Shown piece after piece: positions 6,955-28,468 of a DNA stretch of 38,736 nt. This stretch comes from a virus: the IMG/VR virus record IMGVR_UViG_3300022707_000823, positions 1 to 38,736 of that record. One strand, given 5' to 3'. Under the pieces are notes generated by a model. The model did not search any database, was not told the DNA's origin, and saw only the letters and a program-made list of their open reading frames with translations. A program made the translations under genes and the position numbers. The first letter of the stretch is position 1; every line of letters starts with the position of its first letter.

Positions 6955-7204
6955 TATCCCCTTTCTTGATTTAACACAGCCCATTCAAGACGAGAACGGT
7001 AATTTAACCACTCGATTCAGAACATGGGTCAATGATATGAACCGATTAATTCCCATTGAAGGGGATGGAAGCCCTGAAGGAGTTATTGAGGCTTTAATAG
7101 GCAAGGAATACAGAGATATTTCCGGTGCTACTGGATTGATATTCTACGGTAAGGACTTAGCTGATATTGCAGGCGATAAAAGCAAAGGATGGATTCTATT
7201 ATGA
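6947..7204 (+). CDS. Small virion-cluster protein, unknown
   Basis: A protein of 85 residues. I chose ATG 6947, which overlaps the end of the gp10-like gene, because GGAGGGG lies nine bases upstream; an earlier in-frame start lacks this. The sequence starts ANIPFLDLTQPIQDENGN and ends with a GATGLIFYGKDLADIAG and GWILL motif. Similar short proteins with a P-x-x-x-x-x-x-x-G-N-x-T start occur near tail genes of podoviruses and may mediate virion assembly, but no function is established here. Its stop overlaps the next ATG (ATGA). Confidence 0.65.
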   Translation: MANIPFLDLTQPIQDENGNLTTRFRTWVNDMNRLIPIEGDGSPEGVIEALIGKEYRDISGATGLIFYGKDLADIAGDKSKGWILL

Positions 7205-7683
7205 GGTGTGAAAGGACTTATGACGAAGAGTTGGTACGATCTTTGATTACCCGAAAGGATATATGGGAGACGATTGCCGAAGACGGTCAGAAAATAGAAG
7301 ACTTTACCCCTAATTGTGAAAGTGATTGCTGGTTATTGATGACAGAAGGATCAAAGGTTATAGGATTGTACAATCTACATCCTCATAATTCTTGCACGTT
7401 GGAAATACATGCACATGTAATGCCAGAATGTCGTAAAATGCACTCAGACGAGACAGGAAGATTGGCTTTACAGTGGATATTAGATAACGCACCGAGTATG
7501 TATCAGAAGATCATTGCTCAAGTGCCTGAAATTTACCCAAATGTAAGGAAGTTTTGCGAAAAGAACGGCTTTATACTGGAAGGCACCAACCGACAGTCTT
7601 ACAGAAAGAACGGTGTCATAATGGATCAGTGGTTACTAGGAATTACCCGACAAGAAATACTCAGTTACAAAGAGGTTGCTTGA
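7201..7683 (+). CDS. GNAT-like acetyltransferase-fold phage protein
   Basis: A protein of 160 residues starting at the overlapping ATGA after the previous gene. It has the layout of GNAT-fold proteins: CWLLMTEGSKVIGLYNLHPH as the two central strands, CTLEIHAHVMPECRK as strand 4 plus helix, ALQWILDNAP as the helix and KFCEKNGFILEG (F-x-x-k-x-G-F) as the terminal strand pair. It resembles the DUF2824-type GNAT proteins beside tail genes of P22-like phages. The acetyl-CoA P-loop (Q/R-x-x-G-x-G/A) is poorly conserved, so activity is uncertain. The acceptor is unknown. Confidence 0.7.
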   Translation: MRCERTYDEELVRSLITRKDIWETIAEDGQKIEDFTPNCESDCWLLMTEGSKVIGLYNLHPHNSCTLEIHAHVMPECRKMHSDETGRLALQWILDNAPSMYQKIIAQVPEIYPNVRKFCEKNGFILEGTNRQSYRKNGVIMDQWLLGITRQEILSYKEVA

Positions 7684-8315
7684 TGCCGAAACGCATAGAC
7701 AGAACAGGTGAAAGATTTGGAAAGCTATTAGTATTGGGGCTTGCTGGATTCAGTGGCAACGATAGGCTTTGCCGTGTGCTTTGTGATTGCGGTGTTGAAA
7801 AGGAAATGAGACAGACCTCTCTAACAACTAAAGCTAAGGCGGTTAGATCGTGTGGGTGCTTATCCAAAGGGAATCATTTTAGGTCTCATAATCTAACTCA
7901 CCATGAGTTCTATCCGATTTGGCGAGCAATGGTGTCTAGGTGTTATAAAGAAACGAACAATTCTTATAAAGTTTATGGCGCAAGAGGCATTAGGGTTAGT
8001 GATGAATGGAAAGAAAGCCCTGTCCAGTTTATTGCGTGGCTTCAGGATAACGGCTACACAAAAGGATTGCAGCTTGACCGCATAGATAATGACGGTGATT
8101 ACTCGGCTGATAATTGCAGAGTGACAACGGCAGCAGAAAATAGCCGAAACAAAAGCAACAATGTTAAGCTGAACTTTAAAGGGGAGTCGATTCTTCTCAT
8201 AGATTTAGCCAAAAATCATGGCATTAAGTACGATACAATGTACTCAAGAATATTCAGAATGGGTCTGTCTCCAGAAAAGGCAGTTATTTTTAATCGACAA
8301 GGCCATGCGGTCTAA
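7683..8315 (+). CDS. HNH-type homing endonuclease-like protein
   Basis: A protein of 210 residues whose ATG overlaps the previous stop (TGATG). The N-terminal 60 residues contain two Cys pairs (CRVLCDCG and RSCGC), typical of the zinc module in free-standing phage nucleases. Residues about 80-160 match the pattern YPIWRAMVSRCY, VYGARGIRVSDEW and LQLDRIDNDGDYSADNCR, the D-R-I-D-x-D-G-x-Y-x-x-x-N-C-R signature of this HNH-like group. The C-terminus (ILLIDLAKNHGIKYDTMYSR) looks like a DNA-binding helix-turn-helix. It sits in the late structural operon between unrelated virion genes, as an invading homing gene would. Its stop is one base upstream of a strong ribosome site for the ejection protein gene. 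Confidence 0.8.
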   Translation: MPKRIDRTGERFGKLLVLGLAGFSGNDRLCRVLCDCGVEKEMRQTSLTTKAKAVRSCGCLSKGNHFRSHNLTHHEFYPIWRAMVSRCYKETNNSYKVYGARGIRVSDEWKESPVQFIAWLQDNGYTKGLQLDRIDNDGDYSADNCRVTTAAENSRNKSNNVKLNFKGESILLIDLAKNHGIKYDTMYSRIFRMGLSPEKAVIFNRQGHAV

Positions 8316-8326
8316 GGGGGTCCGAA

Positions 8327-8804
8327 ATGTCAAAAATTAAGGATACTTTTTTTCGGAGGCTCTGAAAAGCGAGCTTCACGCAAGCAGAAAGAATCGATCC
8401 GTCGTGGAATCTCCGAAGTGAGAGGAAAGGCCGAAGAAGCACGCGGTGTCGTTACTGAAGGCTTTGGTAGGGCCGGAGAAACCCTGCGGGCTGGTCAGCA
8501 AGCCGCTTTAGACGTGTTTGGTCTGTCTATTCCTGAACAATTAGGCGCTTTTCAGGGTGGTAATGTGGGCGCTCAAGAGGCTTTATTGGCCGGTGTTCAG
8601 CCGTTTCAGAGTGCTATTTTAGGGACTCCAGGCGCTAATTTGTCAGGATTTCAACCCGTAAGACTACCCATTGATACGAGTTTTGCTCAACAAACTCTAC
8701 CGGGGTTACAACCAGACGCTATCGGTGCTCCCCAGCAGCCTTTTTTACCTCCTAATTTCCAAATTCCTGATTTTGTTAATCCCAAAATAAGGGGTGCTTT
8801 CTAA
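8327..8804 (+). CDS. Internal virion/ejection protein 1, frame broken at a T7 run
   Basis: The ATG at 8327 has a strong GGGGG ribosome site six bases upstream, yet its frame reads MSKIKDTFFRRL and stops at 8363-8365. From the run of seven Ts (8347-8353) the +1 frame continues FFGGSEKRASRKQKES and stays open to 8804. Joined, the two parts give about 158 residues beginning M-S-K-I-K-D-T-F-F-G-G-S-E-K-R-A-S-R-K-Q, the usual start of podovirus internal proteins, followed by an Ala/Gln-rich helical region and a Pro-rich tail. Only six Ts would restore one frame. Either the run is a sequencing or real deletion/insertion site, or expression needs +1 frameshifting or transcriptional slippage. A GTG-initiated short form at 8418 lacks a good ribosome site. 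Confidence 0.7.
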
Positions 8805-18932: not shown

Positions 18933-19227
18933 CGGTAATCAACCCCTTTTCAATCATGCGCTGTAATGTCCTGTAGTGGCCTCTACGCATGCATTCCTCA
19001 AGATCAATCCCTGGTATAAAGATATCCCCACCAGCGTTGAATCGTCCATCAATCATGTCATGGCAAGAGGAACACCCGTAAGCGGCCCACCAATCCGGTG
19101 ATTTCTGCCCCATTCCAGAGTCAGAAGGAAGATGGCATAGAACGACTGTTTCAGGGTTCCCGTTGCAATAAGGATGAATCTGTAAGGTGCATTCCTCTCC
19201 CTTGGCACTCTTTCGTAGTTTGCTCAT
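18925..19227 (-). CDS. YbcO-like (DUF1364) nuclease
   Basis: A protein of 100 residues starting at an ATG that overlaps the upstream HNH stop (ATGA). The sequence LRKSAKGEECTLQIHPYCNG, NPETVVLCHLPSDSGMGQK and the Cys/His set CSSCHDMIDGR match the DUF1364/YbcO family of small HNH-related nucleases in lambdoid prophages. The two C-x-n-C/H clusters probably bind a structural metal. With RusA directly downstream it fits a DNA-processing module. The family assignment is firm; the biochemical role in this phage is inferred. Confidence 0.8.
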   Translation of the reverse strand: MSKLRKSAKGEECTLQIHPYCNGNPETVVLCHLPSDSGMGQKSPDWWAAYGCSSCHDMIDGRFNAGGDIFIPGIDLEECMRRGHYRTLQRMIEKGLITVA

Positions 19228-19835
19228 GCCAAATGTTTCCATGCAAGTCGTCGCCGTATACTTCCGACAGTGGACGGGGCTATATCATAATCCTGCGCTA
19301 TCTCCCGCTCTTTTCGTTTGTCTTTTCTGATAAGCAAGACTTGCCACTCTTTTAATACGGAATTTGACCTATTTTCACCTACACAGACTACATGCCTGCC
19401 TCTCTTTACCATGTCGTTGGAGTTGTCTTGTTGTGTTCCCGCGTACAGATGGTCAGGATTTATGCATATCGGATTATCGCAGTGGTGACAAACAAGCATC
19501 CCTTCTGGAATTTCTCCAATATGAAACGTATAACTCAATCGATGCGCCCTAATCCTTTTCCCTTTGAAATGAGCGATACCGTAGTCTTCTTTAGTCATTT
19601 TTGTTCCGGTCCATTCCCAGCATCCAGAGTCAACCACCACGTAACGTGAAAGAACTTCTTCTACTGACTGACACACTATTATTTTGGGGTTCTTCACCGC
19701 CCTACATAGCTTGCAGTAAGGAAACAGCTTGTCTGGGCGCAAATTGTCTTTGTTAAACTCTGAATGGAGTCTTATTACAGAGCATTTTATGCATCTCTTA
19801 TGCCCTGCTGGAATTTTCATTATTGACGTTGTCAT
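19224..19835 (-). CDS. HNH homing endonuclease with zinc-finger N-terminus
   Basis: A protein of 203 residues with GAGG five bases before the ATG. Residues about 12-50 have two Cys pairs (KRCIKCSV and PYCKLCRA) forming a zinc module. Residues about 70-145 give the HNH_3 pattern GCWEWTGTKMTKEDYGIAHF, RAHRLSYTFHIGEIPEGMLV and CHHCDNPICINPDHLYAGT, with His-His and N-P-D-H catalytic region residues. A C-terminal helix-turn-helix (REIAQDYDIAPSTVGSIRRR) gives DNA specificity. It sits together with the YbcO-like gene between two copies of a short junction sequence, as expected for a mobile or mosaic cassette. Confidence 0.82.
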   Translation of the reverse strand: MTTSIMKIPAGHKRCIKCSVIRLHSEFNKDNLRPDKLFPYCKLCRAVKNPKIIVCQSVEEVLSRYVVVDSGCWEWTGTKMTKEDYGIAHFKGKRIRAHRLSYTFHIGEIPEGMLVCHHCDNPICINPDHLYAGTQQDNSNDMVKRGRHVVCVGENRSNSVLKEWQVLLIRKDKRKEREIAQDYDIAPSTVGSIRRRLAWKHLA

Positions 19836-24882: not shown

Positions 24883-24907
24883 TTAACAGGTATTGGAGGA
24901 TGGCGTG

Positions 24908-25459
24908 ATGGGTAGAGAAATCAGAAGAGTAATAGCTAATTGGGAACACCCAAAAAGAGATCGAGGAGGTTATCAGCCAATGTTTGACCGGGTTGCCTCA
25001 GAGAGGTTTATCGAATGGCTGAAAGAGTTCGAAGATTTCAAACGCGACGACTTGGAAAAATCGGCCAAGGAATACGGATATGATATTAACGATCCATATT
25101 CAGCTTATTGTGATTGGAACGGAGAACCACCAGACCCTCACTACTACCGGCCAAGCTGGGACGAATCTGAGGCTACATGGTGGCAAGTCTATGAGACGGT
25201 AAGCGAGGGAACACCCGTAACACCGCCATTCGAGACGCAAGATGAACTAATTGATTATCTTGTTGAAAACGGTGATTACTGGGATCAGATGCGCAGAAAT
25301 GAAAAAAGGGGTCATTTTATGAGTACGAGCAGCGATCCGTGGAGCAGAGAGATGGCTGAGAAGTTTGTCAAGGGTCCAGGCTGGGCTCCATCTGCCGTAA
25401 TTGTAGACGGCGTTGTTAAAAGTGGCGTGGAAGCTCTTTCGTTAACCCTTAATCAATAG
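24908..25459 (+). CDS. Conserved phage protein with WEHP motif, unknown
   Basis: A protein of 183 residues. ATG 24908 is chosen, with GGAGG eight bases upstream; a TTG start 15 bases earlier would overlap that site. The N-terminus REIRRVIANWEHPKRDRGGY is followed by QPMFD, and the middle has many Trp/Tyr/Pro (CDWNGEPPDPHYYRPSWDES; ATWWQVYETVSEGTPVTPPF). Proteins with this W-E-H-P start and aromatic core are widespread in phages of Gram-negative hosts. Their function is unknown to me. Confidence 0.65.
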   Translation: MGREIRRVIANWEHPKRDRGGYQPMFDRVASERFIEWLKEFEDFKRDDLEKSAKEYGYDINDPYSAYCDWNGEPPDPHYYRPSWDESEATWWQVYETVSEGTPVTPPFETQDELIDYLVENGDYWDQMRRNEKRGHFMSTSSDPWSREMAEKFVKGPGWAPSAVIVDGVVKSGVEALSLTLNQ

Positions 25460-25692: not shown

Positions 25693-25720
25693 CCCCTGTA
25701 GACCATAGGAGATTGATAGG

Positions 25721-26788
25721 ATGGACCTGAAAGAGAAGATCAAGATCAAAACATTAAAGGTTCGAGTCAAGGATAAACACGCCTCCAAGCTGCGAGAAAT
25801 GGCGCGTGACGTGAATTTTATATGGAACTACTGCAATGAACTGAGTAGCCGGTCTATCCGAGAAAAACAGAGCTTCATGTCTGGGTTCGACTTTCACAAG
25901 TATATGGCCGGATCAAGTCAATTCTTCACGGTAAACGCCGACTCAATAGCGCTAGTGGCTTGTGAATATGCAGCCAAAAGAAAGCAGGCAAAGAAGAATA
26001 TTCTAAGATGGAGGAAGTCTCACGGCTCTTGTAGGTCATTAGGATGGATACCCTTTCAATCTAAGGGCATTAGATGGAATGATGGCGCTATCCGATACTA
26101 TGGCATGGATTTTGATATATGGGATAGCTATGGACTCTCGGAGTACAAGTTCAGGGCTGGTAGTTTCAACGAGGACGCCAAGGGTCACTGGTATTTCAAT
26201 GTTGCTGTAGAGGTCGATCCAGCGCAGTCAAAGGGTACTGGGTCAATAGGTATTGATTTGGGTCTCAAAGAAACGGCTACATGCTCTACTGGCGAGGTTT
26301 TACCGGGCAGGCAATACCGGAAGCTCGAAGATAAGCTTACAACGGCACAGAGGGCTAATAACAAGCCCAGGGTCCGCGCTATTCACGCCAAGATCAAGAA
26401 TAGACGGAAGGATGATGTTCACAAATTCACTACGAAATTAGTTGCAGAGAATGCCGCTATTTTCGTGGGCGATGTAAGCAGTAAAAAGCTCATTAAGACG
26501 CGCATGGCTAAATCAGTACATGATGCTGGCTGGCACATGCTCAAGACTATCCTGGAGTACAAGTGCGATTACGCAGGGGTAGTTTTTGAAGTTGTTAATG
26601 AGATGTACACCACCGTAACCTGTAGCGCGTGTAAAAACCGCACTGGCCCTAGTGGCCTGGAAGGATTACGAATAAGAGAATGGTCCTGTGAGTGCGGTGT
26701 CACTCATAACCGTGATGTAAATGCGGCGAAGAACATTCTTGCGGTCGGGCATGACCGTCTTGCTGAAGAAAGAGCGAACGCGGCTTAG
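25721..26788 (+). CDS. TnpB-like (IS605 OrfB) RNA-guided nuclease homologue, altered RuvC-II site
   Basis: A protein of 355 residues with a ribosome site (AGGAG) and close spacing in the early operon. Order: N-terminal wedge-type region with VNFIWNYCNE near residue 31; RuvC-I SIGIDLGLKETATCS (Asp179); a bridge-helix-like basic stretch; RuvC-II region AAIFVGDVSSKKLIKTRMAK; zinc ribbon TCSAC and WSCEC (Cys301, 304, 323, 325); RuvC-III HNRDVNAAKNI (Asp332). The usual RuvC-II Glu (V-x-E-D/N-L) is Gly250 here. Glu290 or Glu294 could substitute in a rearranged site. No TnpA gene or clear transposon ends flank it, so it may be domesticated. Confidence 0.85.
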   Translation: MDLKEKIKIKTLKVRVKDKHASKLREMARDVNFIWNYCNELSSRSIREKQSFMSGFDFHKYMAGSSQFFTVNADSIALVACEYAAKRKQAKKNILRWRKSHGSCRSLGWIPFQSKGIRWNDGAIRYYGMDFDIWDSYGLSEYKFRAGSFNEDAKGHWYFNVAVEVDPAQSKGTGSIGIDLGLKETATCSTGEVLPGRQYRKLEDKLTTAQRANNKPRVRAIHAKIKNRRKDDVHKFTTKLVAENAAIFVGDVSSKKLIKTRMAKSVHDAGWHMLKTILEYKCDYAGVVFEVVNEMYTTVTCSACKNRTGPSGLEGLRIREWSCECGVTHNRDVNAAKNILAVGHDRLAEERANAA

Positions 26789-26826
26789 GTGTCAATCTAG
26801 TAGGAAGACATGGGATTAATTACACG

Positions 26827-26852
26827 TTGACAGATAAGAAGGATAGATAATG
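26827..26852 (+). repeat. Leader repeat, degenerate copy (TTGACA...GGATAGATAATG)
   Basis: The sequence before the gene at 26850 carries TTGACA followed by GGATAGATAATG, the same TTGACA-to-start leader found before the gene at 27078. It is a shorter, degenerate relative of the repeats at 27036 and 27634. The GGATAG part supplies the ribosome site. It points to duplication of small-gene leaders in this stretch. Confidence 0.45.
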
Positions 26853-27038: not shown

Positions 27039-27069
27039 TTATACCACATACCTATTGACATAAATTGAG
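27036..27069. repeat. 34-base regulatory repeat, copy 1
   Basis: TAATTATACCACA, six variable bases, then TTGACATAAATTGAG. The same elements recur with identical spacing at 27634-27667. On the minus strand it contains the extended -10 TGGTATAAT; on the plus strand a perfect TTGACA. Here the plus strand lacks a good -10, so its main activity could be leftward, antisense to the gene at 26850. Confidence 0.6.
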
Positions 27070-27077
27070 GATAGATA

Positions 27078-27161
27078 ATGGATATTGAGATATTAAAAGT
27101 AGTCGGCTTTCTTTTGCTTGTGTTTTTTATTCACGGTATAGCTTCAGATGATTTCTCATAA
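27078..27161 (+). CDS. 27-residue membrane microprotein
   Basis: A short frame (MDIEILKVVGFLLLVFFIHG, then IASDDFS) with GAGG eight bases upstream. It is one hydrophobic helix with an acidic N-terminus and acidic tail. Its leader repeats that of the gene at 26850. Such tiny membrane proteins are common in phage early regions. Support comes from the ribosome site and the helix. Confidence 0.45.
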   Translation: MDIEILKVVGFLLLVFFIHGIASDDFS

Positions 27162-27778: not shown

Positions 27779-28468
27779 ATGAAACATCCTCCAAAAACCG
27801 TAGTTATCGATTGGCTCAATACAATTTGGGAAACTAATCTCCCTTATCAAGCCAAATATCTTGCCTGTTATCTGCGCAAATTTATGAACTCTCACAACGA
27901 TATGGCATACCCAAGCTATGCTCGTATTATACACGAAACCGGGTTATCCAGGTCGACAATTGCTCGCTATATGGAGACTCTGGAAGAGGAAGGATGGATA
28001 GTCAGAGACAAGGGAAATGTGGGCAAAAATACTACTTATACGGCCTGTTTTCCGACTAGTGTCACACAGAGACTAGTGTCAGAGAGACCCGAACTAGTGT
28101 CACAGGGACACTCAACTAGTGTCAGAGAGACACACGAATTAAACAAAGAATTAAACAAAGAAGTAAACAATAGTGGTCCGCGCAGTAAATTCAGCATGTT
28201 TTCAGACTGGAAACCAGAACGTCAAACATGGGAGGCCAATTGCTTCAGATCAGGAATTAACCCTGATTACTCTGATCAACAATTACATGAATTTACTTTG
28301 TACTGGGATGACGACAAAACATGGCTTCTCGAAAACCAGTGGCAAGGTAAATTAATTAACTCATTACGAAACCAACCTAAACAACCTGATCAACTTAAAA
28401 AAGAATTCACCCCTATCTCTGATGACGACTACAAGGAACTCGAAGATGCGTTCTCGCAAAGAAATTGA
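27779..28468 (+). CDS. O-like replication initiator
   Basis: A protein of 229 residues. Residues about 10-85 form a winged helix-turn-helix (YPSYARIIHETGLSRSTIAR, then YMETLEEEGWIVRDKGNVGK) like those in lambda O-type initiators. The middle is a linker encoded by the origin repeats. Residues about 145-200 resemble the DnaT C-terminal DNA-binding domain (FSDWKPERQTWEANCFRSGI; FTLYWDDDKTWLLENQWQGK). The protein would bind the iterons in its own gene and bring in the helicase loader. GG-rich ribosome sequence upstream is weak. Its end overlaps the next gene by 23 bases. Confidence 0.78.
   Translation: MKHPPKTVVIDWLNTIWETNLPYQAKYLACYLRKFMNSHNDMAYPSYARIIHETGLSRSTIARYMETLEEEGWIVRDKGNVGKNTTYTACFPTSVTQRLVSERPELVSQGHSTSVRETHELNKELNKEVNNSGPRSKFSMFSDWKPERQTWEANCFRSGINPDYSDQQLHEFTLYWDDDKTWLLENQWQGKLINSLRNQPKQPDQLKKEFTPISDDDYKELEDAFSQRN
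28055..28171. other. Predicted replication origin (iterons plus A-rich repeats)
   Basis: Within the initiator gene there are four perfect ACTAGTGTCA copies starting at 28055, 28072, 28093 and 28115 (spacing 17, 21 and 22). Directly after them come two tandem GAATTAAACAAA copies (28136-28147, 28148-28159) and a third, GAAGTAAACAAT. This reproduces the design of lambda ori: initiator iterons followed by a purine-rich, easily melted tract, located inside the O gene. The repeats are seen directly; origin function follows by analogy. Confidence 0.8.

What the first reader, a model, noticed from the sequence alone, without database searches (positions are those of the whole stretch)
25721..26788. 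Phage-borne TnpB-like protein with Gly at the RuvC-II glutamate position
The protein has the RuvC-I Asp (179), four zinc-ribbon Cys and RuvC-III Asp (332) of TnpB, but the motif that normally reads V-x-E-D/N-L is FVGDVSS with Gly250. It may therefore be a dead, guide-dependent repressor or use an alternative glutamate (Glu290 or Glu294). It has a proper ribosome site within an early operon, with no TnpA and no obvious transposon ends, which suggests domestication. From memory, nuclease-dead and active-site-rearranged TnpB relatives have been described elsewhere; I have not checked their relation to this one.
Basis: partly seen in the sequence, partly recalled or inferred. Interest (0 to 1): 0.72.

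Follow-up and report, generated by a model that had tools for sequence, protein, structure and literature searches.

The report
Immobilised phage TnpB, shifted catalytic glutamate
A phage carries a gene for an RNA-guided DNA-cutting protein (TnpB) whose catalytic glutamate sits at a different but already described position, so it is probably still a nuclease rather than a dead repressor; the unusual point is that the transposon ends that once made it mobile are largely gone.

Summary
The ORF at 25721-26788 is a full-length TnpB. Gly250 does sit where ISDra2 TnpB has its RuvC-II Glu, but this is a family trait, not a local lesion. All 99 relatives at 38-61% identity from phages, plasmids and chromosomes have Gly there and Glu at the position of Glu294, six residues before the zinc-ribbon CxxC. 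That is the "Ealt" arrangement already described for a D-phi-G TnpB clade and for Fanzors. Glu290 varies freely. D179, E294, D332 and the four Cys are all present, so "nuclease-dead repressor" is not supported. The relatives are TnpA-less or TnpA-bearing IS200/IS605-type elements. An empty site in plasmid pDK1 fixes their ends: TTTAT|LE ... GGATGTCAA|guide. The window copy keeps a strongly covarying reRNA hairpin inside the ORF and the TGTCAA end. It has lost the terminal right-end hairpin, the GAAT box and any detectable left end, and the record has no TnpA. It is therefore immobilised in the phage operon with an intact protein. Most likely it is still an RNA-guided nuclease, acting homing- or competition-like, with guide TCTAGTAGGAAGACATGG. 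No target was found. New member of a known kind.

The parts
25721..26788 (+). tnpB, 355 aa, Ealt-type RNA-guided nuclease; RBS AGGAGA at 25707-25712
   Evidence: AlphaFold2 model pLDDT 90.5, VIA Z 24.8 to ISDra2 TnpB and 24.4 to mimivirus Fanzor2
26255..26257 (+). codon of RuvC-I Asp179 (DLG = D-phi-G)
   Evidence: invariant in 60/60 aligned relatives
26468..26470 (+). codon of Gly250 at the canonical RuvC-II Glu position
   Evidence: Gly in 99 of 100 aligned rows; the one exception (28% id) has Glu; aligned to the ISDra2 Glu
26600..26602 (+). codon of Glu294, relocated catalytic Glu (Ealt), just after strand 288-293 and six residues before CxxC
   Evidence: rule in PMC10711439
26621..26695 (+). 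zinc ribbon Cys301, Cys304, Cys323, Cys325
26714..26716 (+). codon of RuvC-III Asp332
   Evidence: invariant in 60/60 relatives
26741..26758 (+). reRNA hairpin A (GCGGTC GGGCAT GACCGT), inside the ORF
   Evidence: 100% of cells paired in 41 distinct sequences, covariation 1.164 vs 0.224 in shuffles
26759..26788 (+). degenerate right-end region: GGAAT box replaced by AGAAA, terminal hairpin reduced to a weak stem
   Evidence: -3.7 kcal/mol against a family median of -14.4
26789..26795 (+). GTGTCAA, retained end of reRNA scaffold / right end (family: GGATGTCAA)
   Evidence: family alignment and exact IS end from an empty site
26796..26815 (+). predicted guide TCTAGTAGGAAGACATGGGA
   Evidence: starts right after the TGTCAA end as in the relatives; inferred, no RNA data

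Best explanation
This is an Ealt-type (D-phi-G) TnpB that entered the phage as part of an IS200/IS605-like element, probably TnpA-less. It has since been fixed in the early operon by loss of both transposon ends. It most likely still works as an RNA-guided DNA nuclease: the 3' part of its mRNA (hairpin A to TGTCAA) serves as reRNA and the next ~16-20 nt as guide. D179, E294 and D332 form the metal site. Since it cannot transpose, its probable role is homing- or drive-like: cutting the tnpB-less allele or related DNA in co-infection. Shown: family, residues, conservation, fold, end loss. Inferred: reRNA processing, cleavage, target and role.
For: Family and fold. Gly250/Glu294 in 99/99 relatives, with reciprocal E/R in the one distant outlier. 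93 of 98 family-conserved columns kept, within the range of mobile copies. Covarying hairpin A kept. TGTCAA kept at the exact place. Terminal hairpin, GAAT box, left end and TnpA missing. Relatives are real IS, with an empty site giving TTTAT|...|guide and a TnpA beside one. TnpB as a gene drive on IS-free plasmid copies is published (PMC11870625).
Against: The reRNA 3' scaffold is weakened (fold z -0.27 against a family mean of -1.97), so the RNA may no longer work. No target with or without TAM was found. No TTTAT lies directly upstream, so the ancestral target cannot be reconstructed. No close relative exists for a selection test.
Confidence: 0.62

Rival explanations
1. Decaying passenger: the IS jumped into the phage, lost its ends, and the tnpB ORF is drifting with no current function.
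For: Terminal hairpin and left end are lost and reRNA stability is at background; long terminal branch 0.475; other phage copies with short or lost right-end hairpins are scattered in the tree.
Against: 355 codons open at about 40% divergence; 93/98 conserved columns and all catalytic and zinc residues kept; ribosome site and tight operon spacing.
Confidence: 0.22
2. RNA-guided regulator: the protein binds but does not effectively cut, repressing a host or phage promoter, as TldR does.
For: Phage-borne, immobilised, operon-embedded; TldR in prophages is the published precedent (PMC13418256).
Against: TldRs are defined by RuvC inactivation; here D-E(alt)-D and the zinc ribbon are complete. No promoter target found.
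Confidence: 0.1
3. Still mobile in trans: a host TnpA could mobilise it as an IS1341-like element.
For: Relatives without TnpA did move.
Against: The right-end hairpin, GAAT box and left end that relatives share are missing. This excludes mobility only if IS608-like end rules hold (rules from memory).
Confidence: 0.05

Closest known systems
D-phi-G Ealt TnpB clade (Yoon et al. 2023, PMC10711439)
   Same: RuvC-I DLG, no Glu at the canonical RuvC-II site, Glu six residues before the zinc-finger CxxC
   Different: This copy has lost transposon ends; that clade is described from IS elements
TnpB of TnpA-less IS on Pseudomonas plasmid p1160-VIM (L012) and relatives in Salmonella phage LPSTLL and Acinetobacter phage HFM1
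   Same: 53-59% identity, same motifs and hairpin A, same TGTCAA end
   Different: They keep a recognisable right-end hairpin (partly degenerate in HFM1), and L012 also the left end
Fanzor2 (mimivirus, PDB 9b0l)
   Same: Fold, Z 24.4 over 332 residues; relocated Glu as published for Fanzors
   Different: Fanzors have DPG in RuvC-I; here DLG
TldR
   Same: Phage-borne, domesticated TnpB relatives
   Different: TldR RuvC is inactivated; here it is complete

Membership tests
TnpB (RNA-guided endonuclease family) | Profile match above curated cut-off and TnpB fold | tested here: met
   NF040570 203 vs 100 bits; VIA Z 24.8 to ISDra2 TnpB
Ealt (D-phi-G) TnpB clade | D-phi-G in RuvC-I and ExxxxxxCxxC, no Glu at the canonical site | tested here: met
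   DLG at 179-181, E294 MYTTVT C301SAC, Gly250
Ealt (D-phi-G) TnpB clade | E294 coordinates the metal with D179 and D332 | not testable with these tools
   Only secondary structure and pLDDT returned: E294 just after strand 288-293, Gly250 at end of strand 244-251; coordinates not given
Fanzor / pro-Fanzor | DPG in RuvC-I | tested here: not met
   DLG in this protein; Asp179, Leu180 and Gly181 invariant in 60/60 relatives
TldR (TnpB-like nuclease-dead repressor) | Mutated RuvC active site | tested here: not met
   D179, E294, D332 present
Intact IS200/IS605 element | Left and right ends with sub-terminal hairpins | tested here: not met
   LE profile finds none; right-end hairpin -3.7 vs median -14.4 kcal/mol. 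The LE profile finds only 28 of 98, so LE absence alone is weak
Intact IS200/IS605 element | TnpA (Y1) nearby | tested here: not met
   No PF01797 match in the record
Cas12f / type V CRISPR | CRISPR array | tested here: not met
   No direct repeats of 22 nt or more within 150 nt in the window
Functional RNA-guided nuclease | Guided cleavage | not testable with these tools
   Needs a cleavage or plasmid-interference assay

The most novel reading that the evidence does not exclude
A phage-domesticated, immobile Ealt TnpB with a remodelled, shortened reRNA acts as a fixed-guide RNA-guided weapon or regulator. It would be one of several independent phage captures, with similar short-ended copies at L019, L061, L053 and L002.
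Probability: 0.2. Interest if true: 0.6.

Novelty: new member of a known kind. Interest (0 to 1): 0.33.

Why it matters
It turns a puzzling "missing catalytic residue" into a clean example of the relocated-glutamate active site shared with Fanzors. It also points to phage-held TnpBs that have lost mobility but kept the protein, so whether phages use TnpB for themselves can be tested. It warns that calling TnpBs "dead" from the canonical Glu alone will misfile a widespread family (99 relatives collected here all lack it; the query matched 3,482 plasmid and 384 phage records at E 1e-5, counting all TnpB-like matches).

Tried and rejected
Glu290 as the catalytic residue: variable (E, K, D, I, R). 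Nuclease-dead TldR: active site complete. CRISPR effector: no array. Guide target: none in viral contigs (18-mer), in the window, in phage records (only E=7 matches), or in 294 genomes of one order (2 genomes with a match, a chance level like the reversed-pattern control); the true host is unknown. Empty site for this phage: neighbours 24893-25459 and 27779-28468 gave one unrelated phage and none, and no near DNA match exists. Residue-level geometry from the model: coordinates are not released by the tool. dN/dS: no relative closer than 61%. A link between the upstream 188-aa gene and TnpB/Cas12-like genes (seen in L102): further phage homologues were found but gave no support in the annotation shown; their surroundings were not read. 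A first attempt at an LE/RE alignment with RNAalifold over the whole 185 nt gave mis-registered rows and was replaced by anchored hairpins.

Full report
The thing itself. The ORF 25721-26788 encodes 355 aa with a ribosome site and sits between a 77-aa ORF and a 62-aa ORF on the same strand, in a region with SSB, DnaT/replication-initiation and HTH genes. It is TnpB by every library used and the AlphaFold2 model (61-row alignment, pLDDT 90.5) matches ISDra2 TnpB (Z 24.8) and mimivirus Fanzor2 (Z 24.4) over nearly the whole length.

The active site. ISDra2 TnpB has Glu where this protein has Gly250. In 99 relatives from viral contigs, plasmids and chromosomes this residue is always Gly, and the residue aligned to Glu294 is always Glu; the one distant outlier in the same alignment has Glu at 250 and Arg at 294. 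Such reciprocal occurrence is what a relocation predicts. Yoon et al. define Ealt as a Glu six residues before the zinc-finger CxxC and describe two Ealt clades, D-phi-G and DPG (PMC10711439). This protein is D-phi-G plus Ealt (DLG; E294-MYTTVT-C301). In the model Gly250 is at the end of strand 244-251 and Glu294 follows strand 288-293, so both sit at C-terminal strand ends, as an RNase H-like site needs; Glu290 lies early in its strand (the argument from strand ends is inference). Glu290 varies in the family.

The relatives and their ends. Relatives occur as stand-alone genes and beside an IS200/IS605 TnpA (L014); one Acinetobacter genome holds at least five full-length copies. Comparing plasmid p1160-VIM (L012) with the empty site in pDK1 (L103) gives exact ends: TTTAT | CAGTCGGGCC... 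left-end hairpin ... right-end hairpin GGATGTCAA | flank, 1172 bp, no TnpA. By the established rule for IS200/IS605 (stated in PMC10711439, and from memory for IS608) TTTAT is the TAM and the right flank is the guide.

The reRNA. Inside the ORF, codons 341-346 form a 6-bp hairpin (A). Across 41 distinct versions all 246 base-pair cells are paired, covariation 1.164 against 0.224 for shuffles and at most 0.27 for slid partners. The window keeps it perfectly. The 41 were chosen as rows that register with the hairpin; of 96 rows placed by the protein alignment alone, 96% of cells pair. The family's terminal right-end hairpin (median -14.4 kcal/mol) is reduced to -3.7 in the window, the GGAAT before it has become AGAAA, and GGATGTCAA has become GGTGTCAA. 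The left-end profile finds nothing upstream, although it finds only 28 of 98 family members and is weak evidence alone; no TTTAT occurs between 25400 and 25720 (sequence). No TnpA is in the record. So the copy is immobilised.

State of the protein. It keeps 93 of 98 columns that are at least 90% conserved in the rest of the family, in the middle of the range of the others; D330N is the only change beside the catalytic set, and N occurs there in an experimentally solved relative, LaTranC. On a FastTree it is a lone long branch nested among IS copies, and the other copies with weak right ends (L019, L061, L053, L002) lie elsewhere, which suggests repeated independent loss of ends in phage contigs.

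How it probably works. Shown: family, residues, fold, hairpin, end loss. Inferred: the 3' end of the tnpB transcript is processed into a reRNA ending in TGTCAA plus a guide TCTAGTAGGAAGACATGG; the RNP cuts TTTAT-flanked matches using D179-E294-D332. For an immobile copy the sensible pay-off is drive-like: cutting tnpB-free alleles, as demonstrated for IS200/IS605 on plasmids (PMC11870625). I found no target, and the weakened scaffold leaves room for decay (rival, 0.22).

Novelty. The relocated glutamate is published for TnpB and Fanzor; rearranged TnpB catalytic sites were also surveyed by Altae-Tran et al. 2023 (known to me; listed in the references of PMC13418256; not read here because it is not held). 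The phage-immobilised state of this particular copy was not found described, but is a modest variation. I file it as a new member of a known kind.

Noticed in passing
L102 6465-7010 and 7022-8422 (IMGVR_UViG_3300025326_000023): CRISPR-like array (36-nt repeats GGCGCAGTAGATGACTAAGAgGCTTGGTGATGCGAG, about 36-nt spacers, 8 copies) beside a 466-aa protein with weak TnpB/Cas12u3/Cas12f matches; degenerate repeat copies also at 8399 and 8471, at the 3' end of the gene. Possibly a compact phage type V system.
   Followed up: partly
L001 5971-8441: Two different TnpB genes of the same family side by side on one viral contig, 43% and 45% identical to the window protein.
   Followed up: no
Klebsiella plasmids, e.g. 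L106 1501-1595: Stand-alone ~95-nt copies, 91-94% identical, of the right-end/reRNA part of the L014 element without a full tnpB; may be remnants or guide RNAs working in trans.
   Followed up: no
L019 around 7059-7080, L023/L024 around 7050-7075: TnpB copies whose right end runs directly into the likely start codon of the next phage gene (GCCAATGAGC, GTCATATGAGC): ends fused to phage operons.
   Followed up: no
window 26827-26852 and 27055-27080: A 26-nt direct repeat (81%) TTGACA...GGATAGATAATG ahead of two small ORFs: a repeated leader or ribosome site.
   Followed up: no
window 7554-8315 and 19224-19835: Two ORFs resembling proteins of other fetched phage loci and probably HNH-type homing endonucleases; from sequence look only.
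   Followed up: no
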